A stretch of DNA of 64,000 bases. It comes from Anastatus disparis (taxonomy: Eukaryota; Arthropoda; Insecta; Hymenoptera; Eupelmidae). Location of the stretch: positions 186,001 through 250,000 of the forward strand of contig JAFFSR010000091.1 of NCBI GenBank assembly GCA_017163975.1, written 5' to 3'. Under the pieces are notes generated by a model. It saw nothing but the letters and a program-made list of their open reading frames with translations. It had not been told where the DNA came from and made no database searches. Of this stretch, positions 43,865 to 63,534 are shown in pieces. The stretch's first letter is position 1; every line of letters starts with the position of its first letter. Position numbers and translations under genes: made by a program.

Positions 43865-45368
43865 ATGGATAAAGCCAAGAAAAGAAGGACAGTGCAGCGT
43901 GCAGCATTCACAAAAGCATTGAATAATTTTGATCAAGCCGTTAGTGAAGATTCTGTTGAGCCTCGTAACGTAAAAGTATTGTTTCGTATACTCGAGCAAA
44001 AAATGACTGAATTATCGAATAATACTGAAGGTATTATCAATCTTTCACTTGATGTGACGTCTACAACTGATGAAGATTTACAGAAAGAATACGATGAAGC
44101 CGAGGAATACAAAAACAAATTTTTTGCGGCTCAAGTGTTGTTTGAGGAATTTTTAACACCTCAAGGAAGTGATTTACCTGCTCCGCCAGTTTATCCAACT
44201 AATACATTAGTGCGTGTTGAAGAAGATACTTCTTTTAAATTGCCAAAATTCAACCAACAACGTTTAATGGTGAAATTAGTGGTTGGCTTAAATTTTGGAG
44301 TTATTTCAAAAAGATTCACGAGAAACCGAAACTTTCTAAAGAAGAAAAGTTTCAGTATCTCATCAAAGCGATGGTTCCTGGATCTAAAGCAGATCTACTA
44401 GTGTCAAGTTATCCACCAACTGAAGAGAATTACGATAAGGTGATAGCTAGTTTAAAGTCTTGCTTTGGTAGAGAAGATTTACAAACGGAATTTCATATGA
44501 GTCAGCTTGTGCAATTAGCCATAGACAATGCTACTAGTGATCGACCTATCCAACTTGATGTAATGTATGACAAGCTGGAAACTCAAATAAGAGCATTAGA
44601 ATCGCTTGGTGTAAATAATGATAAATTTGCAGCCGCGATATTACCTTTGGTTGAATCAGCATTGCTGGAGGAATTTTCAAGAATTTGGCAACGAAGCTGT
44701 AGCGCGAATATAGTGTTAAATAGAAATGAAGGAATTTCCGCGAACTCGAAGGAAAGGCTCACACAGCTTATAAAATTCTTAGAAACGGAAGTTCAAAGTG
44801 AAACACGTGTATCGATGGCGCGCAAAGGTTTTAGTGTATCGCACAACGATTCTCAGAAAATTGACAAATCTAAAATTCCGCATAAAAGTGAAAAGAAAAA
44901 TTTACCTAGTGGTATAGACTTAATGACTGTGAATAAAGTTAAACAGTGTATTTTTTGTAATGGCAGTCATTCGAGTGAAAAATGTGAAAAAGCTGAAAAG
45001 CTAAGTTTTTTAGAAAGACAAGAACTTGTTTTTAGTATTTTTATGTATTTTTTCAACTTTATTTGTAATTTTCACGCTTTTTTGTAATTATAATACAAAA
45101 TAAACAATATCTAATCTAATCTAAAAACTTGTTAAGAAAAAAAAATGGCTGCTTTAACTGTCTTAACATAGGGCATGGTTATAAAACGTGTAAAGTAAAA
45201 TTATGTTGCCCGAAATTTTCGCGTCGTCATGTGCTATTAATGTGTCGTGATTCGCAGAAAAGCGAAAATATTAATACTGTGTCTTCTAATAATACTGAGA
45301 ATTCTAATATTGATTGTAATTTGGCAAATCTTGGTGTATGTCAAGAAGTGTTTATGAAGACGATTTAA
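43865..45368 (+). pseudogene. gag: BEL/Pao gag region (broken)
   Basis: ATG at 43865. The N-terminal helical region runs to about 44250, where the frame shifts; the capsid-like region follows in another register (44371-45020). A CCHC-type knuckle (CIFCNGSHSSEKC) lies at 44948-44986, and a second Cys-rich knuckle (CFNCLNIGHGYKTC) follows at 45150-45191. Between them a 95-bp insertion (45031-45125) breaks the frame. A TAA at 45366-45368 ends the frame before the protease. BEL/Pao gag-pol is normally one ORF, so these are lesions, not gene ends. Confidence 0.8.
45031..45125 (+). mobile_element. 95-bp insertion with 8-bp target duplication (truncated LINE-like tail)
   Basis: AACTTGTT occurs at 45023-45030 and again at 45126-45133. 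The inserted 95 bp include an AATAAA signal and end in ATCTAATCTAATCTAAA, a short tandem tail like those at the 3' ends of some non-LTR retrotransposons. The gag reading resumes exactly after the second copy. Confidence 0.7.
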
Positions 45369-46020
45369 GTTAAATTAATAAATGAATGTTCTGAAATAGT
45401 GGTTCGTGCCTTTATCGACAGTGGCTCGCAAAACTCTTATATAAGGAAAGAGGCGGAGAAGAGGAAATATGCAATATGAACCTGTGGCCGAACATCATAT
45501 GAATATCATATGTCTCATTTATTATTCGGTGGTCAACGCACAGAGACTGAAACATTGTAAATATAGAGTGCGTCTGTGTTCGTTAGATAATAGCTATCGA
45601 TGTAACTTTCTTGCTATGGATCAAAATATTATATGTGAAAATATTAAACCGCCGCGTAAAGGTATCTGGTGTGAAGAACTCCGAAAGACTAATATTAACA
45701 TTAATGATTTAAATTCTCATAACAGTGAAATTTCTATTTTGATCGGAGCAGATATTATCCGTAAATTGTACACCGGTCGTATAGTGAATCTACCGTGCGG
45801 TTTAGATGCGATGGAAACTCGTTTCGGCTGGGTACTTTTTGGAAAGGTACCGCATAGTACTGAACGTACTGATGCTGCTGCCGTAGCCGTATCTTTGTTT
45901 GTGAGTAACGACAAAGTAACTGATTTATAGAATTTAGATACGCTCGGCATAAAAGACCCGATTGAATGTAAATCGCAAAAAGAACGCAATCATGAACTTA
46001 ATGAACGTTTTTCGAAAACA
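45369..46020 (+). pseudogene. BEL/Pao aspartic protease region (broken)
   Basis: The catalytic motif FIDSGSQNSYI lies at 45410-45442. A frame break follows near 45465, and the rest (ISILIGADIIRKLYTG and FGWVLFG, 45735-45850) is the conserved C-terminal part of the BEL/Pao protease. A TAG at 45928-45930 is a single in-frame nonsense codon: the same register stays open beyond it into RT. Confidence 0.75.
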
Positions 46021-47106
46021 GTGACTATTAATAATGAGGGTCGTTATGAAGTGCAGTTACTTTGGCTAGAATGCCATCCTTTTATAAATGATAATAAATA
46101 TATGGCTGAAAAACGCTTAATATCCACTACAAGAAAATTAAAGGTTCAAGGTTTTTATGAAGAATATAACGCTGTCTTTGACGAGTGGCTTTCCGAAGGC
46201 GTGATTGAGCGTGTACCGCCTGTAGAAGAAGATGAGTGGGGGCATTATTTGCCGCATAGGCCAGTCATCAAGGACCAGAGTACTACCAGAATACGCCTGG
46301 TATTCGACGCATCGGCTAAAGATCTACAGTCACCGTCGCTGAACGAATGCTTGAGTATTGGACCTAATTTAATCGACCTCGTGCCATCTATTCTTTTACG
46401 TTTTAGGTTAGGTAAGATAGGCGTTATTGCTGATATTATAAAAGCGTTTCTTCAAATAAGTGTAGATGCTAAAGAACGTAATTTTTTAAGATTTCTTTGG
46501 TATGATAAAAACGGTAAAATAATTGTTTATCGTCATTGTCGTGTTGTTTTTGGCGTTTCTTCCAGCCCTTTTATTTTAAATTCGGTTATTAATTTACATT
46601 TAAACAATGTTATTAAACGTTTAATGCCTTGCAATAATGATAATTCTATATGTTCGAGCGAAAATATTTCAAAATTATCAAACAGTTTTTATATTGATAA
46701 TTGTGTAACGAGCGTGAATTCCGTGCGACATTTAGAAAATTTTATAACCGATGCAAAAACAGTTATGTATGAAGCAAAATTTGACTTGAGAGGGTGGGAG
46801 TATAATAACGATAATTCTGAAAAAAATAAAACGACTGTACTTGGTATAATATGGGATAAACTCTCTGATCACTTGAGTGTTTATGTACCTTCTTTAAATG
46901 TAGTTGAGAGTAATGAAATAATAACAAAACGTAATATTCTTTCTTTTGCGCATCGTGTGTTTGATCCGTTGGGATTTATGTGTCCAGTTGTACTTTAATC
47001 TCAACTTTTACTTCAAGATACTTGGTCAGAGAATTTATCATGGGACGATAAAGTTCGCGAAAATACTAAAATTTCATTTTTAAAGTGGGTAAACGAACTT
47101 AAAGAT
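46021..47106 (+). pseudogene. BEL/Pao reverse transcriptase (broken)
   Basis: Shows RLVFDASAKD, IADIIKAFLQI and FGVSSSPFILN, the BEL/Pao RT palm motifs, and an active site reading SFYIDNCVTS near 46684-46713 (YIDN; a D-to-N form at the second Asp that occurs in some BEL lineages to my knowledge). A TAA at 46996-46998 is an isolated nonsense codon; the same frame resumes and is open to 47406. Confidence 0.85.
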
Positions 47107-47695
47107 TTGTCTAAAATTCAAATACCACGTTGTTTCTTAGGAAATGTAAGTAATGATGCTAATATAAGTATTCATACATTCTGTGACGCTAGTATGAGTG
47201 CGTATGCTACCGTGATTTATTTACGTGTACAAGATGGTTCGAATGTTAATGTATACTTTGTGCAAGCAAAAAATAGAGTCGCTCCGACTAATTATAAAAA
47301 ACTTGATGGACGAAAAAGTATACCACGCCTTGAATTGTTAGCTGCGACTATAGGTGCGCGCTTGACTAGTGTAGTGTTAGACGCGTTAGATTTTAAAAAT
47401 TGTTAATGTTTATTACTGGTCTGATTCTAGCACCGTCTTAGCGTGGATACATCGTCAATGTAATTGGGATGTCTTTGTTTATAACCGTGTTAGTGAAATT
47501 CACACGCTCACTAAACCCGAGCAGTGGCGTTTCGTCCCTGGCGAATCTAACTCAGCTGATTTGCCATCTCGAGGCTGTAGTGTAGCTCAACTTTTAAAAT
47601 CAAAGTGGTGGGAAGGCCCGACGTGGTTACGCGAAGATTCTCGCAATTGACCTGACACGCATTATATTGTTGATGAAAATGCGGTTAACGTTGAA
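47107..47695 (+). pseudogene. BEL/Pao RNase H-like region (broken)
   Basis: It contains IHTFCDASMSAYATVIYL and IPRLELLAA, typical of the BEL/Pao RNase H, then a frame break near 47400, after which YYWSDSSTVLAWI and FVPGESNSADLPSRG follow in the integrase register. A TGA at 47648-47650 interrupts again. The retained acidic residues are as expected, but the region cannot be translated as one piece. Confidence 0.8.
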
Positions 47696-49324
47696 ATGAA
47701 GAAAAATCAAAAAAATAATATTACATGTAATGTTTTAAGTTTGTTATCTTACGAAAGTAATAATGAACGATGGTTTGATAAATTTTCTAGTTTTGAAAAA
47801 ATTGTACGTATTACTGCTTGGTTGAAAAGATTTTGTTTTAATTGTCGAAATAAAATAAAAAGTGAACGTAAAATAACTGATTTAACTTATGATGAGATTA
47901 AACAAGCTGAAATTCATTTGTTAAAAAATATTCAAGATAATGCTTTTACGGGTATAGAAGATTCTCGCATAAAACATCTCGCACCGTTTATTGACGAAAC
48001 GGGTTTGATTAGATTAAAAACGAAAATTGTAATGCGAGACGATGCTTTTGATTTTAAATACCCGATAATTTTGCCAAAAAATGATAAAGTTGTTCGTTTG
48101 ATTATTAAAAGTAAACATGAAAGTTTAAATCACGCGGGTACTCAAATAACATTAAACGCGCTACGTGAAAAATTTTGGGTGCTTGGTGGTCGCAGAATCA
48201 TTCGTTCTCTGATACAGGATTGTATTATTTGTCGCCGTCATGATGCTTCACATCTTGAAGCTATAGCTGCTCCTTTGCCGCTTAACCGTGTAAAAGACGC
48301 AACTGTCTTTGAAATTATTGGTGTAGATTACACGGGGCCTATTTATTTAAAAAATAATAAAAAATCGTGGGTTTGTTTATTTACATGCGCGGTGTATAGG
48401 GCCGTGCATCTTGAGCTAGTTACTTCTTTATCGACAGCGACATTTATGATGGCTATTAGACGTTTCATTGCGCGTAGAGGTAGACCATCTATAATCTATA
48501 GCGACAATGGGAAAAATTTTGAAGGTTTGAATAACGGGCTTCAAAGAATTAATTATACAAAGTTAGCTAAAAGTTTTGCTATTGAGGGTATAGAGTGGAA
48601 GTTTAATCCACCGGTCTCGCCTTGGCGGGGAGGTTTCTGGGAGAGATTAAACGGCATTTTAAAACGTCTAATAAGACGTACATGAAGAAAAACGTGTTTA
48701 GATTATGAGGAAATGCAAACTGTTCTATTAGATTGCGAGTCCGTCATAAATTCCCGGCCTATAACTTTTTTGTCTGACAATAAGCAAGATTTTGTACCTT
48801 TTTCTCCGTCTATGTTCTTGCAAGAGGTTAAAGATATAGGTGTAGTGGATCTTGATAAAATTGATCAAATTGACTTTAACAAGCGGTACATATATCGTAA
48901 AAATGTAATGGAATCTTTAAGAAAACGATTACATGTAGAATATCTTGGTGCGTTAGTATGTAAGAATTCTAAAATTAAAAATTGTAACAGTGTGAGTGTC
49001 GGTGATATTGTATTAATCGAGTGTGATAATTTAAAAAGAGTGAGTTGGCCTTTAGCACGCGTAAAAGCTTTAATTCCCGGTGTAGATAAATGTGTGCGCG
49101 TAGTTCGTTTGAAAACGGCAACTGGTGAACTTACACGGCCTATACAAAAGGTTTATCCTCTCGAGGTAAAATTAAATGAAAACAATCACGAAATTCATGA
49201 AAAAATTGTTAAAAATTATAATAAATTCGAACAAGATCAGACAGTTAAAGAAAATGTAAAAATAATGGTAAACAGTTGCGATTTACGAGAAGTGGTCGTA
49301 TTTGTAAGTCACCTGACAGATTAA
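47696..49324 (+). pseudogene. BEL/Pao integrase with C-terminal domain (one nonsense codon)
   Basis: H2C2 finger (HESLNHAG with CIICRRH), then the DDE core: Asp in GVDYTGPI, Asp in IYSDNGKNF, Glu in GGFWERLNG. A TGA at 48683-48685 interrupts just after the core; the same register continues as the C-terminal domain (PITFLSDN and WPLARVKALIPG, the BEL-typical segment) to 49324. Catalytic residues are intact apart from that stop. Confidence 0.85.
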
Positions 49325-54760: not shown

Positions 54761-55302
54761 TATCAGTGCTTAGCACAAAAAACCTGAAATTATCATCAAA
54801 AATAACGTCTAAAGCAGGATCTGTTATTAAAAAAAAGACAATATGAATAAGTCAAATGAAAGAGAAAAAAAATGTAATTCACAACAATCACTGAAGAATC
54901 GAGCCTTGATGTGCCCTCCATAGAAGCTTTAGTTGCTGATTTTTCAGAATGCTTCCAATTAAAAAAAGATATGAGTTCAGAAATAAAAACATTTATCTAT
55001 AAATATTTAAAATTAAAATAAACTATAATTATAGCTATTTATTTAGATTGTCTTCTCTTACAAAGCATTACTGGTGAGTCCTATAAACGGATCTTTGATG
55101 AAACGCAAAATTTGAATTTCATTTAACTATAAAAAAATGGTCATTATCATCATCATGAACTCAAAAATCAGCATCAATGTCAAGACGTCCATGTGTATTG
55201 ACATAAGTAAAGAAAGTCGAAAAGCGACATCAGAGTCATAAAACGATTTCATATGAGAAAGTGAAGAAGACAGACACAAAGACCAATTGACAAAGACGGA
55301 TA
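54761..55302. other. Unassigned DNA
   Basis: Only a short helical frame near 54865-55020 (DVPSIEALVADFSECFQLKK) hints at former coding sequence. No family was recognised. Confidence 0.3.
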
Positions 55303-55720
55303 ATAAACCATAAACCCGTAAACCATAAACCCATAAACCCATAAACCCATGAACCCATAAACCCATAAACCATAAACCCATAAACCATAAACCCATAAAC
55401 CCATAAACCATAAACTCATAAACCATAAACCCATAAACCTTAAACCCATAAACCATAAACCCATAAACCATAAACCCATAAACCAAAAAATCCATAAACC
55501 ATAAACCCATCAACCATAAATTAATAAACCATAAACCCATGAACCCATAAACCATACACCCATAAATCATAAACCCATAAACCATAAACTCATAAACCTA
55601 TAAACGATAAATCCATAAACTATGAACCCTTAATCTATAAACCCATAGAATATAATCTCATGAAAAATAAACCAAAAACCGTAAACCCATCAACCATAAC
55701 CCATTAACCATGAACCCATA
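55303..55720. repeat. (CCATAAA)n-type heptamer minisatellite
   Basis: About 400 bp of ACCCATAAACCATAA words, based on the 7-mer CCATAAA with an interspersed extra C. Long Met/Tyr/Gly/Phe/Trp frames on the minus strand are translations of this repeat, not genes. The unit is one base away from the plant-type telomere heptamer CCCTAAA but is not the insect telomere repeat. Confidence 0.85.
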
Positions 55721-57889: not shown

Positions 57890-58363
57890 TTATGAATGGT
57901 TTTGTGAGAGATAGAATAATTTCATGAGTCTGACATTGTGTAGTGCACAGACAGTCTTATGAATTGGATTATGGTTTGTACACACAGTAACGCATTTGAA
58001 AGATGGGTTTAATGGGTATCCGTATTCATTGATGTTATAAACGGGAAATTTGAATCTTAGCAACCATTTTCGTTTGAATTCATTAATAACAAAAATTTTT
58101 GTAGCATCATGTAAATGTTCACGGAGTAAGTTTGCAATTTGAGAGTAATCTAGTCCATCAGTGTTCCAAGCTATTCCATGATTATGTTTGAGTCGAATGT
58201 TTTCTTCTTGCAATTTGTCAGAGAGCCTTTTCCATGAAAAAGGTTTTTTGAATAAATGAACGATGGGATCACCACTGTCGTTGAGAGGAATGATTGCTAT
58301 TTCCTTTAGAACATATTCACCACCCATTTGCTTAAAACCAATCATGTCTACCGCATATTCCAT
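57890..58363 (-). CDS. Unrecognised 157-aa protein of the Maverick-type cluster
   Basis: ATG at 58363, intact to the stop at 57890. It starts MEYAVDMIGFKQMGGEYVLK and has an HGIAWNTDGLDY segment, a central AT(K)IFVINEFKRKWL segment and several Cys/His in the last 30 residues (CVTVCTNHNPIHKTVCALH), which could bind metal. The layout, an acidic N-terminal motif with an hD start and a later H/D-rich part, is loosely like a nuclease fold, but I do not assign one. It is the last gene of the minus-strand block, 39 bp after the capsid-like gene, and is followed by the hairpins at 57726-57862. Confidence 0.75.
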   Translation of the reverse strand: MEYAVDMIGFKQMGGEYVLKEIAIIPLNDSGDPIVHLFKKPFSWKRLSDKLQEENIRLKHNHGIAWNTDGLDYSQIANLLREHLHDATKIFVINEFKRKWLLRFKFPVYNINEYGYPLNPSFKCVTVCTNHNPIHKTVCALHNVRLMKLFYLSQNHS

Positions 58364-58402: not shown

Positions 58403-59644
58403 TCAGACAAGCTTCCGAACATCTCCACTAATAGGATTGTACTGAACGATGCGATCGTGTAAGATCATGCAATAAGCTGAAGTATTAGCTGGAAAGTCAG
58501 TTTGAGACTCAAATTCTAGACGTACATCGACAGGAGCGCTCTTTAGAGATTCGTTTTGTCGTAAACAGTCAATAACTATGAGTGGTTCAAAGTTGATAAA
58601 CTGAGACTTTGTCAACAATGGTTGTGAATCTCTTCCGTAATAGCTTTTCTGAAAATTAGCATACATATCATATAGAATAGCAAATTGATTCTTAGATATG
58701 TCAAGAGTGAGATTGTTGTACGGATAATATTGCGAATTCAAGAAAAGTCTCACATTATTAATATTACAGTGGTCAAAGCGACTGGCATTTTTAGGTCTTG
58801 AACCTTTTTTTCCCGATTGTAATCCAAGAATCACGAAACGTGGTTTTTCCAATTGATTTGAAGTTTTTACCGTCCAGACGTGTTTATTTGTTGTTGGAAG
58901 AAGAGGATATTCAAATAACTCCCATGAACGAAAACTCATAGAAATAGGATTATCTTTGCCAATGAAATTTAACAGCTGGATTTTTTGTTTATCTGATGCA
59001 ATAACATATGGCATTAACCACTCTATCTTTGATATTTTTATTTGATAAGGTTCATATGTGGTTGCATTGTTGGCTACAGTACCTTCCTGTACTATAGCAT
59101 TCAGGTCATTTCTTGATCTTGTGAGAATGAGTTCATGCTTCATATTAACAACAATTTTCTTGTAATCTTCTGCGAAGCCTAAAATCATACTTAGTGGGAT
59201 AGAAACGTCAAAATTTCCATGATCATCTACAATTGTTTTGTTTCCTTCTTCAACACCAAGCCAGCCTGCATTTTCTAATGTTAGAGTCTGATTTGGATTA
59301 AATGAAGTGCATCCCTTCATGAGACTACTCAGACCAACATTTTTACTTTTATCTATCTCTACAGCATTAAGTTCATATCGAATTTCATCAAACAGATGAC
59401 AAATGCCATTGTTAACGAAATTAGTTTTAGTTAGTGCTTGTCCATCTGGTTTTTGTAATTTTCCACATACATGGATGTAACTACATGATGGTAAGAGGCA
59501 TAAATCTTGATGCTGAATAGAAATACGGATTTCATCACTGTTATTGAAACTTAATGTGGAGTATGGTTGATGTGCGTGAACCTCATAATGAGCAATAGAC
59601 TCATCGAATGCGACACCTGATTGAATGCTTAGAATTTCGTCCAT
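58403..59644 (-). CDS. Major capsid-like protein (double jelly-roll type)
   Basis: 413 aa, ATG at 59644. It starts MDEILSIQSGVAFDESIAHY and continues as a beta-rich protein of the F54H12.2-like family, which in Maverick/adintovirus elements is the hexon-like major capsid protein. That assignment is from recognition of the family pattern (GICHLFDEIRYELNAVEID, WLMPYV, GRDSQPLLTKSQF and the C-terminal VRLEFESQTDFPANTSAYC), not from a structure. It is somewhat short compared with double jelly-roll capsids of large DNA viruses. No transmembrane segment or signal peptide. It lies between the 48-aa peptide gene and the 157-aa gene, a virion-morphogenesis block. Confidence 0.8.
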   Translation of the reverse strand: MDEILSIQSGVAFDESIAHYEVHAHQPYSTLSFNNSDEIRISIQHQDLCLLPSCSYIHVCGKLQKPDGQALTKTNFVNNGICHLFDEIRYELNAVEIDKSKNVGLSSLMKGCTSFNPNQTLTLENAGWLGVEEGNKTIVDDHGNFDVSIPLSMILGFAEDYKKIVVNMKHELILTRSRNDLNAIVQEGTVANNATTYEPYQIKISKIEWLMPYVIASDKQKIQLLNFIGKDNPISMSFRSWELFEYPLLPTTNKHVWTVKTSNQLEKPRFVILGLQSGKKGSRPKNASRFDHCNINNVRLFLNSQYYPYNNLTLDISKNQFAILYDMYANFQKSYYGRDSQPLLTKSQFINFEPLIVIDCLRQNESLKSAPVDVRLEFESQTDFPANTSAYCMILHDRIVQYNPISGDVRKLV

Positions 59645-59674: not shown

Positions 59675-59821
59675 TTATCTTTTTCCACGTACTTTGAGAC
59701 CTATGCTTTTGAGAAACTGGATGCTCTTCCGTGTTAACGGTTTGAGTACCTTTGGACGACTGATGGTGGGTTGACATGATGGCTGACTTATATGCACACT
59801 TGAATTATAAACGATTCCCAT
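59675..59821 (-). CDS. Small basic peptide of 48 aa
   Basis: ATG at 59819-59821 overlaps the stop of the penton-like gene (the bases read TATAATG, where TAA is the upstream stop and ATG the start). It ends at TAA, 59675-59677. The C-terminal half is strongly basic (KVLKPLTRKSIQFLKS, then KVRGKR). It lies 30 bp upstream of the capsid-like ATG. Its size, charge and place suggest a small core or cement-type virion peptide; function is not established. The overlap with the upstream stop and the tight spacing argue that it is a real gene. Confidence 0.6.
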   Translation of the reverse strand: MGIVYNSSVHISQPSCQPTISRPKVLKPLTRKSIQFLKSIGLKVRGKR

Positions 59822-60510
59822 TATACAGATTTTATGTGAAGTCTAACAGTAATTTCCTCTCCTCGGAAATTCACTAAATTTCCGTCTTGATCAACGATTC
59901 GGATTTGAAGATGATCTATACTTTTAACATTGAGTGGTAAATATATGACATGCGATGGAACTTCTATGATTTTATATCCTGGAGGAACTTTTGGGAAAAA
60001 CTCATGGATCGTGTGAACTTTTTTGTCGTTGATGTAAGCACCTGTAGTAATATTACACTCTACTCTGAGTGCGTTTATTTTCAATATCTTCACAGGTAAA
60101 TCAGAGCTGTGATGAATGTCTTCATGAAGAACGCGACGAGTGAAACCGAGAAGACTGCCTATTGAATCGCGAGGTCTAAGATCTATCTGATGGCTGCAAT
60201 AAATTTCACTTCTGAGAGTATTGTTGTTAGCTTTCAAGGAAAACTCGACGTCTTTAGATTTCAAATCTTTTTGCAAAAATTGATTAATAGCATCAATTTC
60301 ATAACTGCCAGTAGGAATAATAATAATCTTCTCTCCGTTTATATGAAGTTTATTATTCGAATCGTCAACATTGGGAATCGAGTTGAATGTTAAAAGTTCA
60401 ACTAAACCCAAAACAAAATTCTCATGCTGTGGTAGTTCTATTGAAGGAAAATATTGCGCTTCTAAGATAGAAGATTTGCCTGAAAAACTCAAAGTGAAAC
60501 TATCTTCCAA
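59821..60510 (-). CDS. Penton-like minor capsid protein
   Basis: About 229 aa; the open frame reaches to the segment EDSFTLSFSGKSSILEAQYF. It is beta-rich, with GSYEIDAINQFLQ, LRPRDSIGSLLGF and, near the C-terminus, LQIRIVDQDGNLVNFRGEEI. This fits the single jelly-roll penton protein found next to the major capsid gene in Mavericks/adintoviruses (inference from pattern and position). No ATG is present near the expected N-terminus: the best candidate start is TTG at 60508-60510, one base from ATG. A TATAAAAG box lies upstream at 60553-60560. The stop overlaps the start of the next small gene. Confidence 0.7.
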   Translation of the reverse strand: MEDSFTLSFSGKSSILEAQYFPSIELPQHENFVLGLVELLTFNSIPNVDDSNNKLHINGEKIIIIPTGSYEIDAINQFLQKDLKSKDVEFSLKANNNTLRSEIYCSHQIDLRPRDSIGSLLGFTRRVLHEDIHHSSDLPVKILKINALRVECNITTGAYINDKKVHTIHEFFPKVPPGYKIIEVPSHVIYLPLNVKSIDHLQIRIVDQDGNLVNFRGEEITVRLHIKSV

Positions 60511-60552: not shown

Positions 60553-60560
60553 CTTTTATA
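60553..60560 (-). promoter_or_regulatory. TATA box overlapping the protease-gene stop
   Basis: Minus strand TATAAAAG; its TAA is the stop codon of the PLA2/protease gene (60556-60558), and it lies about 45 bp upstream of the penton-like start, a suitable distance for a core promoter. Confidence 0.55.
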
Positions 60561-61701
60561 GTCTTTCACACAAGAATTGAAGACAAAGATGTCCACAAAT
60601 AAATGAGTCAAAATTTTGATATCTTTTATAGTTGTATTTCACTTCTTTCACGTTAAAATATAACATGAGATCTATAGGGGGTTTAAGATCACCAAAACTA
60701 TCAAAATAAATCACTTCAGAACCTCGTTTTCGATAACATACCCAGTGAGTGCCTTTGTTTTGAAAAGCATCTAAGTTAACTATAGCAGATTCGTTATGCC
60801 ATGGGCCATCAGAAGGTAGATTATTTCTCATGAAAACACCTCGAAAATATGGGATTTGCATCATACGAGCATACTTTATAAGATCATAGTCAGTCAGTGC
60901 ACGATTTGGCAAAGTTAAATCGAAGTTTTTTTTTTTAACTTGACCATGACCGATATGAGGTTTCATAAATAATCCCATTCCAGTTTTATATGGTTTAAGA
61001 TAGAGACCTTTTCCTAGAGCAATAGCTTCCATAGTTTTATTATGTCTCTTACTTTCTTCATAATTTTTCTGTGCAGCTTTAGCCTCATTTACTGCTTTAG
61101 CTATTCCAGCAGCTCCTCCAGCCAGAGCACCAGTTGCACTTAGTGCTGCGAACAATGGTATGAGAAAAGGCAGAGCGCCACCTATTTTTGATGGAACAGG
61201 TAGAATACGTGGAATGATAATTTTTTTCTTACTGCCAACAATCTTGAGAGCTTCACGTGCACCTTTTAAAGCGGACTGTATAACTTTGCGAGAATGTTTA
61301 CTTGGTTTTAATGATTTTTTACTTGCAGTTACTAATTTACTCAATTTTACACCCATTACTGTCTTTCCTTTTAATTTCATAGCATTTGCAACAACAAAAG
61401 CAGTTGCTTTTTCGTTAAGACTTGCATCTTTGGCTCTAACACGCTGCCAAGCTTTATCAGCGAGTTTCATGTCAGCTACTTTTCGATCAGCATTTTTATC
61501 AGAATAAGATATGTCATGTTCTTTGCATGCTTGCTCAAGTGGATTGATGCCTGCATCACCTCTTTTTAGACGCTTTTTCAGTTTTGTTCCGGGACCACAA
61601 TATTGATATCCAGGAATATGCATTTCAATAGGTAAGTTATTGATTACTTTATCAAGTAACCCTTTACCCTTAGGGTGCTTCTGTGATTTGTGTACGAGCA
61701 T
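60556..61701 (-). CDS. Phospholipase A2 / adenain-like cysteine protease fusion
   Basis: 381 aa, ATG at 61701. Residues 30-75 are a parvovirus-type secreted PLA2 domain: the Ca2+-loop YCGPG (34-38) and the catalytic HD dyad in ACKEHDISY (His62, Asp63). Residues about 130-175 are very Lys/Arg-rich, and about 181-211 form a hydrophobic Ala/Gly-rich helix (PFLIPLFAALSATGALAGG), a possible membrane-active segment. The C-terminal third is an adenovirus-protease/Ulp1-type domain with GTHWVCY (His319), YFDSFG (Asp334) and FICGHLC (Cys369). The PLA2 would help membrane breach at entry; the protease would mature virion proteins. The gene is intact and shares a 98-bp divergent promoter with the ATPase gene. 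Confidence 0.85.
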   Translation of the reverse strand: MLVHKSQKHPKGKGLLDKVINNLPIEMHIPGYQYCGPGTKLKKRLKRGDAGINPLEQACKEHDISYSDKNADRKVADMKLADKAWQRVRAKDASLNEKATAFVVANAMKLKGKTVMGVKLSKLVTASKKSLKPSKHSRKVIQSALKGAREALKIVGSKKKIIIPRILPVPSKIGGALPFLIPLFAALSATGALAGGAAGIAKAVNEAKAAQKNYEESKRHNKTMEAIALGKGLYLKPYKTGMGLFMKPHIGHGQVKKKNFDLTLPNRALTDYDLIKYARMMQIPYFRGVFMRNNLPSDGPWHNESAIVNLDAFQNKGTHWVCYRKRGSEVIYFDSFGDLKPPIDLMLYFNVKEVKYNYKRYQNFDSFICGHLCLQFLCERL

Positions 61702-62496: not shown

Positions 62497-62538
62497 TCTT
62501 AATCTTTGCAGTTCGATTGTAGACAGCATCTTGTCAAC

Positions 62539-63534
62539 ATGCCTGACTTTAAGAAAGAAAAAAATGTTCTTAGCGAGCTCTTACGAGCACGTAAGGCTAT
62601 TAAAAAAAAATACTCTTTATTAAAAAAGGAGAGAGATGATTTTGAAAAGGTTATTGGTGATACTTTAAAACCAGTTATTACACCACTTGAAAAGCTTGTC
62701 GATTCGACAACTGAAAGTGTGTCACGTTCTAATCACATTTCAGCTATAGACAGTAACAGAAAATCGGCAAAAAAAAGATTGAGATTCGACGAATCAAGTT
62801 ATATTTTAAACGATATTAATGACTCGGGTTCTGCGTTTGATAATAATGCTTCTAATGGCGATGATTTTTCTCCGATAAATAGCACAATGATGAATTCATC
62901 ATTCAATTCTGCAAATTCATCATTCAAATCTATATATTCACCATTTGTACCTGCGCACAAAGAAACTGAACCGACAGACTTTTTATCAATGCTAAATGGA
63001 AGCCGCAGCAAAATCGATAACATATACGGAGTGAGAAAAGTCAGTGGGGTATACATGATGGGTGATTCACAAATTCAATTTGATGATAAAATAATAAAAG
63101 TGAAAGATTTTAGTTATCCTAAAAGCAGTGGTCTAATGGAATTGCTTTTCAAAAAAGAACCAGATGATAATCTTTTAAGAACAACAGATCGCAAGAACTA
63201 TCGCATTATCCTGGAAGCAACAAATGCCCATAGAAAAAGACATAGCAAAAGTGAGAATATACGCTCTTCGAAGAGTAGAAAATATTCAAAAATCATAGCA
63301 CCAATGTTCCGCAGTGATCGCAGTAGAATGTCTACCAGCGGAGGGGGTCTCATACCTAAATATAAAATAGCAAAAAAGAATACTTCCATAGATCTAGTCT
63401 ACTGGGATGATCCGAATGAGCTTGTCGAAAGACTGCGATTATTAATAGCCAAACGATCTGCTGGAAATAATAATCACAACAATGAAATCCAATCAATCAT
63501 AGAGGAACTACGTGAAGCTGGGCATATATATTGA
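62539..63534 (+). CDS. Coiled-coil protein of the Maverick-type cluster (331 aa)
   Basis: The first ATG is 62539 (MPDFKKEKNVLSELL). Residues 1-40 are a Lys/Glu-rich coiled coil (RKAIKKKYSLLKKERDDFEK). A Ser/Asn-rich, probably disordered middle (residues 70-140) has short repeats (NSSFNSANSSFKS). The C-terminal part has a conserved-looking motif VYWDDPNELVERLRLL and IIEELREAGHIY. Proteins with this C-terminus accompany Maverick-type genes in insects and cnidarians and are annotated as an unknown-function family (DUF8207, from memory). Function unknown; it may be a scaffold or minor virion protein. It ends TGA, 63532-63534, beside a TATATAT box. Confidence 0.8.
   Translation: MPDFKKEKNVLSELLRARKAIKKKYSLLKKERDDFEKVIGDTLKPVITPLEKLVDSTTESVSRSNHISAIDSNRKSAKKRLRFDESSYILNDINDSGSAFDNNASNGDDFSPINSTMMNSSFNSANSSFKSIYSPFVPAHKETEPTDFLSMLNGSRSKIDNIYGVRKVSGVYMMGDSQIQFDDKIIKVKDFSYPKSSGLMELLFKKEPDDNLLRTTDRKNYRIILEATNAHRKRHSKSENIRSSKSRKYSKIIAPMFRSDRSRMSTSGGGLIPKYKIAKKNTSIDLVYWDDPNELVERLRLLIAKRSAGNNNHNNEIQSIIEELREAGHIY
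63525..63531 (+). promoter_or_regulatory. TATA-like box at the stop of the coiled-coil gene
   Basis: TATATAT is immediately followed by the stop codon TGA (63532-63534), about 35 bp before the next ATG (63566). Confidence 0.45.

What the first reader, a model, noticed from the sequence alone, without database searches (positions are those of the whole stretch)
60556..61701. One intact gene fuses a parvovirus-type PLA2 to an adenovirus-type cysteine protease
Both halves keep their visible catalytic residues (His62/Asp63; His319/Asp334/Cys369) and are joined by a basic region and an Ala/Gly-rich hydrophobic segment. A virion protein carrying its own maturation protease and an entry lipase would couple assembly to membrane breach; the protease might release the PLA2 by self-cleavage. 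Separate PLA2 and adenain-type genes are known in DNA viruses; I cannot tell whether this fusion has been described.
Basis: partly seen in the sequence, partly recalled or inferred. Interest (0 to 1): 0.78.

Follow-up and report, generated by a model that had tools for sequence, protein, structure and literature searches.

The report
Virus lipase-protease gene with slippery joint
In an integrated insect virus-like element, a membrane-cutting enzyme and a virus-maturation protease read as one protein, but the two halves meet at a long run of A's whose length decides, copy by copy, whether they stay in the same reading frame.

Summary
The ORF is real: 381 codons, minus strand, 60556-61701. It has a parvovirus-type PLA2 domain, a segment weakly like adenovirus protein X, and an adenain-fold protease, inside a Maverick/adintovirus-like element (double-jelly-roll capsid protein and packaging ATPase beside it). 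The named catalytic residues are kept.

The fusion is not a fixed property of this gene. The domains meet at an A11 tract (60926-60936). In sister copies of the same genome the tract varies widely (longest A21) and its length sets the frame: of the 150 scored copies nearest the window's PLA2 half, 38 run on into the protease, 106 do not, 6 are unclear by length. In two other sets, 26 of 26 readable split copies have no Met between the stop that opens the protease frame and the protease domain. The protease is about as often intact in split as in fused copies. Of the best 120 public relatives, 30 are fused, some with no Lys run at the joint.

Best explanation: PLA2-pX and protease are joined at the tract by slippage (transcriptional or ribosomal), as retroviruses join Gag to Pro; the window copy is the in-frame state. 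Slippage is inferred, not shown. Main rival: neutral drift of a hypermutable homopolymer.

The parts
60556..61701 (-). single ORF, 381 aa: PLA2 - basic linker - pX-like hydrophobic segment - K-rich joint - adenain-type protease (stop included)
61411..61626 (-). parvovirus-type phospholipase A2 domain, residues 26-97 (YCGPG loop, His62-Asp63, Asp77)
   Evidence: PF08398, E 6e-10; 26 of 26 fused proteins
61099..61182 (-). adenovirus protein-X-like hydrophobic segment, residues 174-201
   Evidence: weak (E 0.65 here; 0.0027 for the best relative)
61114..61125 (-). candidate adenain-like site LAGG (residues 193-196), cut would follow G196; consensus recalled, cleavage not shown
   Evidence: [MIL]xGG in 108 of 118 pX segments (found in 118 of 121 proteins), 10.2 expected by shuffling, but the sequences share descent
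60926..60936 (-). A11 tract (A in the mRNA sense) at the PLA2-pX / protease joint; longest homopolymer between the PLA2 loop and the protease His
60559..60912 (-). adenain-type cysteine protease, residues 264-381 (His319, Asp334, Gln362, Cys369)
59821..60510 (-). 229-aa ORF, probable minor capsid/penton protein by position only (no Pfam family at its cut-off); no ATG start in this copy
58403..59644 (-). double-jelly-roll major capsid protein, 413 aa
   Evidence: PF21738, E 1e-117
57890..58363 (-). 157-aa ORF in the place of Sf-Maverick ORF8
   Evidence: position compared with PMC5803895
61800..62495 (+). packaging ATPase (Pox_A32-like), divergent from the fusion ORF
   Evidence: PF04665, E 2e-6
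62506..63534 (+). 342-aa ORF following the ATPase (place of Sf-Maverick ORF2)

Best explanation
The element encodes a membrane-active core protein (PLA2 + pX-like segment) and its maturation protease as two ORFs that meet at a homopolymeric A tract. Slippage at the tract (RNA polymerase slippage, ribosomal frameshifting, or both) makes some PLA2-pX-protease fusion besides PLA2-pX alone, much as retroviruses make Gag and Gag-Pro. The fusion would carry the protease into the particle with the entry lipase. In the window copy the tract happens to be in phase, so the fusion is read directly. SHOWN: domains, frames, tract lengths, absence of a Met before the protease domain in many split copies, purifying selection on the protease over the copies compared. 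INFERRED: slippage, its products, packaging, cleavage. Because both +1 and -1 states are common here, transcriptional slippage is the one mechanism I know of that could serve all copies; ribosomal -1 frameshifting alone could serve only the rel2 (-1) copies.
For: Tract length decides the frame in otherwise matching flanks (a few copies with a further change beside the run, such as L026, L030, L084-L086 and L095, depart from the simple rule). Counts not selected by frame: 38 of 150 scored copies run on into the protease (27 full length, 11 altered inside it), 63 rel1, 43 rel2, 6 unclear by length; for two other queries, open frames of 335 aa or more in 23 of 138 (tallied) and of 374 or more in 31 of 137 (tallied; 4 partial rows dropped). 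Readable split copies with no Met between the preceding stop and the protease domain: 12/12 (L051-L080), 14/14 (L121-L140), 18/38 (L081-L120, window family) = 44 of 64 (rechecked in 108); 6 of these 90 loci were unreadable and 20 fused. Protease intact in 26 of 37 readable split copies (40 fetched) against 27 of 38 in-frame copies. Protease dN/dS, pairs with dS 0.08-1.5: median 0.137 for 36 fused-fused pairs, 0.134 for 43 mixed pairs. The longest homopolymer between the PLA2 loop and the protease His lies at the joint in 71 of 72 loci, 27 of 27 outside the window's family, in families down to 62% protein identity. In public relatives, 82 of 90 split proteins have a K3+ run in the last 30 residues (41) or Lys-Asn in the last 7 (41), and fused forms without a Lys run of three exist in contig-derived, presumably unspliced proteins (P0009, P0011, P0028, P0031). 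In the second family the 7 split copies of L051-L060 keep the 229-aa ORF whole in 6 and the ATPase in one stretch in 7, one of these with a stop.
Against: No RNA or protein evidence of slippage exists here. Long A-runs are unstable in this element anyway: an A9 run inside the 342-aa ORF is A9 in only 25 of 41 copies. In the window family all 20 readable rel1 copies of L081-L120 do have a Met just before the tract, so those could make a separate protease. Downstream RNA in the window folds little better than average (z -1.2 for 125 nt). AAA is the usual Lys codon (333 of 454 codons in 9 representatives), so pure A-runs are not very improbable; the third Lys column of the joint is AAA in only 5 of 9, and other Lys columns are AAA in 9 of 9 too. 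Tract length changes faster than flanking substitutions (at least 26 changes of frame class on the tree of 86 copies), which also fits neutral drift. Split-split dN/dS rests on 6 pairs, 5 with one copy (L080) of shortened protease frame (median 0.43); pN/pS within rel1 copies is 0.72.
Confidence: 0.5

Rival explanations
1. Neutral homopolymer drift: the ancestral working gene is a plain in-frame PLA2-protease fusion; the A-run is hypermutable and out-of-frame copies are decayed copies carried by other elements' proteins.
For: Run length differs between copies whose 425-base flanks are identical (10 copies: A11 x6, A12 x3, A9 x1; 9 copies: A11 x5, A12 x2, A13 x2). A9 in another ORF of the element also varies. 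Fusions without a Lys run exist in public proteins.
Against: Split copies are the majority in all three query sets (106 of 150; 115 of 138 under 335 aa; 104 of 137 under 335 aa) and in the window family their protease is about as often intact as in fused copies. 90 of the best 120 public relatives lack the protease motif too. The long run sits at the domain border and not elsewhere in the gene in 71 of 72 loci.
Confidence: 0.28
2. Two separate proteins: the protease is translated from its own start (own mRNA, reinitiation or splicing), overlapping the PLA2 gene; the in-frame window copy is an accident.
For: Sf Maverick 1 and 2 were described with CAP (PLA2, 258 aa) and PRO (133 aa) as separate neighbouring ORFs (PMC5803895). 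In the window family rel1 copies have a Met ahead of the tract in 20 of 20 readable. 289 protease relatives of stand-alone length were found, the best 120 listed.
Against: 44 of 64 readable split copies have no Met before the protease domain. Many of the 120 listed stand-alone proteases begin inside the domain (MRN..., M.IP.FRG) or just before it, where the M may stand for GTG or TTG (reading of the list; others there do start with a Met near the Lys run).
Confidence: 0.15
3. Assembly artefact: homopolymer errors in this assembly create the frame differences, including the window's in-frame state.
For: Homopolymers over 10 bases are error-prone in any technology (general knowledge); no reads could be inspected; flank-identical copies differ in run length.
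Against: Most runs of 5 to 6 bases are stable in the same copies. The tract spans about A8-A21 in other families, too wide for error. Public proteins from other data show both fused and split states.
Confidence: 0.07

Closest known systems
Insect Maverick/Polinton CAP (PLA2) and PRO genes, e.g. Sf Maverick 1/2 (PMC5803895)
   Same: PLA2-type CAP directly followed by adenain-type PRO; ATPase, an ORF7 of capsid-protein length and ORF8 in the same relative order; PLA2 residues and protease triad reported conserved there
   Different: There CAP and PRO are two ORFs, the small ORFs all on one strand, and the authors took CAP for the capsid protein; here PLA2 and PRO are one ORF in this copy, joined at an A-tract, and the ATPase is divergent
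Parvovirus VP1 unique-region PLA2
   Same: PF08398 domain, Ca-binding loop, His-Asp dyad
   Different: VP1 PLA2 is tethered to a single-jelly-roll capsid protein (recalled); here to a pX-like segment and a protease
Adenovirus adenain (peptidase C5) with its pVI cofactor
   Same: Fold; His/acid/Gln/Cys with Gln-Cys 7 apart (adenain spacing recalled); in adenovirus too a membrane-active core protein and the protease are coupled (pVIc cofactor, recalled)
   Different: Asp instead of Glu as the acid residue (recalled for adenain), shorter C-terminal end, covalent fusion instead of a cofactor peptide
Retroviral Gag-Pro frameshift arrangement
   Same: A structural protein ORF overlaps a protease ORF at an A-rich slip-prone site; here the protease ORF often has no start of its own
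   Different: dsDNA element; tract is a long homopolymer of variable length; no marked downstream structure in the window; frameshifting unproven
Adintovirus Hexon-Adenain ('Hexain') frameshift idea (PMC11071296, section 16 read)
   Same: Slippery sequence proposed to fuse adenain to a capsid protein in the same virus group
   Different: Partner there is Hexon and the prediction is by KnotInFrame; here the partner is PLA2-pX and the site is an A-tract with mixed frames

Membership tests
Parvovirus-type PLA2 (PF08398) | significant domain match and catalytic His-Asp with Ca loop | tested here: met
Parvovirus-type PLA2 (PF08398) | phospholipase activity | not testable with these tools
   needs an assay
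Adenain / peptidase C5 | adenain fold | tested here: met
   best five PDB hits adenovirus proteinases, E 5e-6 to 9e-5; E 0.0018
Adenain / peptidase C5 | Pfam C5 model at its curated cut-off | tested here: not met
   no hit for the window protein; 3 of 26 fused proteins, best E 0.091; so filed as adenain-like
Adenain / peptidase C5 | His, acid, Gln, Cys residues | tested here: met
   26/26, 25/26, 26/26, 26/26
Adenovirus protein X (PF05829) | significant match | tested here: inconclusive
   E 0.65 here, 3 of 26 fused proteins with best 0.0027
Maverick/Polinton (adintovirus-like) | double-jelly-roll capsid protein, A32-like ATPase and adenain-like protease in one cluster | tested here: met
   ATPase and 229-aa ORF beside the gene in L051-L060
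Maverick/Polinton (adintovirus-like) | PolB, integrase and terminal inverted repeats | not tested
   expected beyond the window's right end; not fetched
Gag-Pro-like recoding | overlapping ORFs meeting at a slip-prone tract | tested here: met
Gag-Pro-like recoding | no independent start for the protease | tested here: inconclusive
   no Met in 44 of 64 readable split copies; Met present in 20
Gag-Pro-like recoding | stimulatory RNA structure downstream | tested here: inconclusive
   window z -1.2, -1.3 and -0.2 for 125, 95 and 65 nt; no pseudoknot search; the two other sequences of that call were not at the junction and are dropped
Gag-Pro-like recoding | measured frameshift or slippage product | not testable with these tools
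   no reads or proteomics

The most novel reading that the evidence does not exclude
Insect Maverick/adintovirus-like elements use an A-rich recoding site (long A tract, or in other insects possibly A AAA AAC) between an entry lipase-pX protein and the maturation protease, making a PLA2-pX-Pro polyprotein that doses and packages the protease: a Gag-Pro strategy in a dsDNA virus lineage, with tract length acting as a mutable switch between obligate fusion and slippage-dependent fusion.
Probability: 0.42. Interest if true: 0.8.

Novelty: new variant of a known kind. Interest (0 to 1): 0.62.

Why it matters
Maverick-like elements carry capsid, ATPase and protease genes, but how the protease is dosed and packaged is, as far as I know, open. 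A coupled entry lipase and maturation protease, joined by a slip-prone tract, would be an unexpected parallel to retroviral Gag-Pro. It could also explain why proteins of these elements turn up as 'fused', as 'two genes' and as 'protease without start', and it can be tested with ordinary RNA reads and a reporter.

Tried and rejected
Chance loss of a stop: rejected as the cause; the frame follows the A-run length. DNA of relatives from viral contigs: two scans, no relatives. Counting fused proteins with the protease region of P0001: 11 hits among only 22 candidates, and known fused proteins were missed, so not used as a count. The 108 copies are not used as a fusion rate: the full-length query ranks in-frame copies first. 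RNA folding for L055 and L062 used wrong coordinates and is dropped. Selection by frame state is weak evidence because the state flips faster than substitutions occur; that script set the class by run length modulo 3, so two copies with a substitution beside the run (L084, L085) were counted as in frame. A-run purity by codon columns is suggestive only. The script count of fused proteins with and without a Lys run (8 and 22) is not used: its motif missed several joints and took one run that is not at the joint.

Papers: PMC5803895 section 11 part 1, section 14 and passages; PMC11071296 section 16 and passages; PMC4642659, PMC3671162, PMC11071308, PMC8363768, PMC4061559, PMC12567637, PMC5009743 passages only; the adintovirus founding paper (veaa055) is not held. 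That PLA2-protease fusion or an A-tract recoding site between them is not in print rests only on searches of an open-licence library, whose lists I saw and of which I opened only the papers named.

Full report
WHAT IS THERE. The ORF at 60556-61701 is on the minus strand, 381 aa from ATG to stop. Beside it on the same strand lie a 229-aa ORF, a double-jelly-roll major capsid protein (PF21738, E 1e-117) and a 157-aa ORF; the divergent plus-strand gene is an A32-like packaging ATPase (PF04665, E 2e-6). This is a Maverick/adintovirus-like element in a 939-Mb eukaryotic assembly. PolB, integrase and terminal repeats were not looked for.

DOMAINS. Residues 26-97 are a parvovirus-type PLA2 (26 of 26 fused proteins). 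Residues 174-201 weakly resemble adenovirus protein X (E 0.65 here; 3 of 26 fused proteins, best 0.0027). Residues 264-381 are an adenain-type protease: profile match to 1avp E 0.0018, predicted fold with the five best PDB hits all adenovirus proteinase, block mean pLDDT 80-96 from residue 261 on. The Pfam C5 model itself is not met by the window's protein. Catalytic residues over the 26 fused proteins: His62 and Asp63 26/26, His319 26/26, Asp334 25/26, Gln362 26/26, Cys369 26/26.

THE JOINT. Between the halves the mRNA-sense DNA reads GTT-A11-CTTC, at 60926-60936. In the same genome the sister copies differ at this tract. In the window's family A11 and A14 put the protease in frame, A12 and A15 put it one base on (rel1), A10 and A13 one base back (rel2), apart from a few copies with a further change beside the run. 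A search with the PLA2 half only, which does not select by frame, scored 150 copies. By open-frame length 27 are fused and full, 11 run through the joint but are altered in the protease, 63 are rel1, 43 rel2 and 6 unclear (one of these, L021, is in frame with a stop in the protease). With P0020 as query, 23 of 138 copies have open frames of 335 aa or more; with P0117, 31 of 137 have 374 or more (4 partial rows dropped). So the fused state is the minority in each of the three query sets. The 108 copies look almost all fused because the full-length query ranks in-frame copies first.

IS THE PROTEASE READ SEPARATELY? In split copies I read the protease frame back to the stop before it. In L051-L080, 12 of 12 readable split copies have no Met before the protease domain (15 fused, 3 unreadable); in L121-L140, 14 of 14 (5 fused, 1 unreadable); in the window family (L081-L120, all chosen as split) 18 have none and 20, the rel1 copies, do have one just ahead of the tract (2 unreadable) (63 of the 64 rechecked). 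In 44 of 64 the protease can therefore be reached from an AUG only through the tract or through some other event such as splicing.

ARE SPLIT COPIES DEAD? The protease is intact in 26 of 37 readable split copies of the window family (40 fetched) and in 27 of 38 in-frame copies (by open-frame length). For pairs with dS 0.08 to 1.5, protease dN/dS has a median of 0.137 (36 fused-fused pairs) and 0.134 (43 mixed pairs); split-split pairs are only 6, median 0.43, five of them with L080, whose protease frame is shortened. Within the window family pN/pS is 0.31, 0.72 (rel1), 0.26 (rel2). In the second family the 7 split copies of L051-L060 keep the 229-aa ORF whole in 6 and the ATPase in one stretch in 7, one with a stop. 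On a tree of 86 copies the frame class changes at least 26 times, and copies with identical 425-base flanks differ in run length, so the state is too short-lived for state-wise selection to be read.

IS THE TRACT SPECIAL? It is the longest homopolymer between the PLA2 loop and the protease His in 71 of 72 loci, 27 of 27 outside the window's family; the second longest there is 5 to 7 bases in 69 of those 71. Representatives down to 62% protein identity keep it. Against this, AAA is the common Lys codon (333 of 454), the third Lys column of the joint is AAA in only 5 of 9 representatives, and an A9 run inside the 342-aa ORF also varies (A9 in 25 of 41 copies). Most runs of 5 to 6 bases are stable, so the assembly is not generally bad at homopolymers, but reads were not available.

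OTHER INSECTS. Of the best 120 public relatives of the whole protein (of 1465 hits), 30 carry the protease motif and 90 do not. Of the 90, 41 have a run of three or more Lys in the last 30 residues, 41 others have Lys-Asn in the last seven, and 8 have neither. Several fused proteins from contig collections, presumably unspliced (P0009, P0011, P0028, P0031), have no run of three Lys at the joint, so plain in-frame fusions seem to exist; several named ones (e.g. P0022, P0026) may be gene models joined by annotation.

MECHANISM. I favour slippage-made PLA2-pX-protease, alongside PLA2-pX, with the window copy in the directly fused state. Transcriptional slippage is preferred to -1 ribosomal frameshifting in this genome because both +1 and -1 states are common; RNA downstream of the tract in the window has no marked structure (z -1.2). 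IS elements, potyviruses and retroviruses use polymerase slippage or ribosomal frameshifting in similar overlapping layouts (PMC5009743, passages). The protease could then be carried into particles with the lipase; adenovirus couples protease and membrane-active pVI through the pVIc cofactor (recalled). The candidate LAGG|A site inside the pX segment ([MIL]xGG in 108 of 118 pX segments, 10.2 by shuffling) could separate the PLA2 from the rest, but shared descent alone could explain its conservation.

KNOWN OR NEW. PLA2 in Polintons is known (PMC4642659, PMC3671162, passages), and CAP (PLA2) next to PRO as two ORFs is known in Sf Mavericks (PMC5803895, sections 11 and 14). A slippery Hexon-Adenain fusion has been suggested in adintoviruses (PMC11071296, section 16). 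I found no paper on a PLA2-adenain fusion or on an A-tract between them in searches; the library lacks most subscription papers and the founding adintovirus paper. I rate it a new variant of a known kind.

Noticed in passing
62602-62610 and 62558-62564 (342-aa ORF): A9 and A7 runs inside this ORF also vary among copies (A9 in 25 of 41, A7 in 20 of 41), so its frame is probably broken in many copies.
   Followed up: partly
60677-60681 (protease, G5 on the plus strand): A one-base-shorter form of this run recurs in several haplotypes and ends the protease frame early (the 348-349-aa open-frame class is 10 of 150); recurrent deletion, recombination or sequencing error was not resolved.
   Followed up: partly
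59821-60510: In the window copy the 229-aa probable minor capsid ORF has no ATG start; 43 of the other 49 copies of L001-L050 keep one, 6 were unreadable at this place, so this copy may not be fully intact.
   Followed up: partly
P0091 (Molorchus minor gene model, 557 aa): Model continues from PLA2 and a partial protease into a sequence that looks by eye like the next gene of the element (the 229-aa ORF); could be a three-gene fusion or an annotation join.
   Followed up: no
43865-49324: Series of ORFs that look like a retrotransposon with reverse transcriptase and integrase (name from reading, not searched).
   Followed up: no
55127-55585 (-): 152-aa ORF made of a short VYGFM-type repeat; probably a tandem repeat read as protein.
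   Followed up: no
own genome G000: Hundreds of related Maverick-like copies in one genome, in several families: representatives share 62-98% of the PLA2-protease protein (the lists overlap in part).
   Followed up: partly
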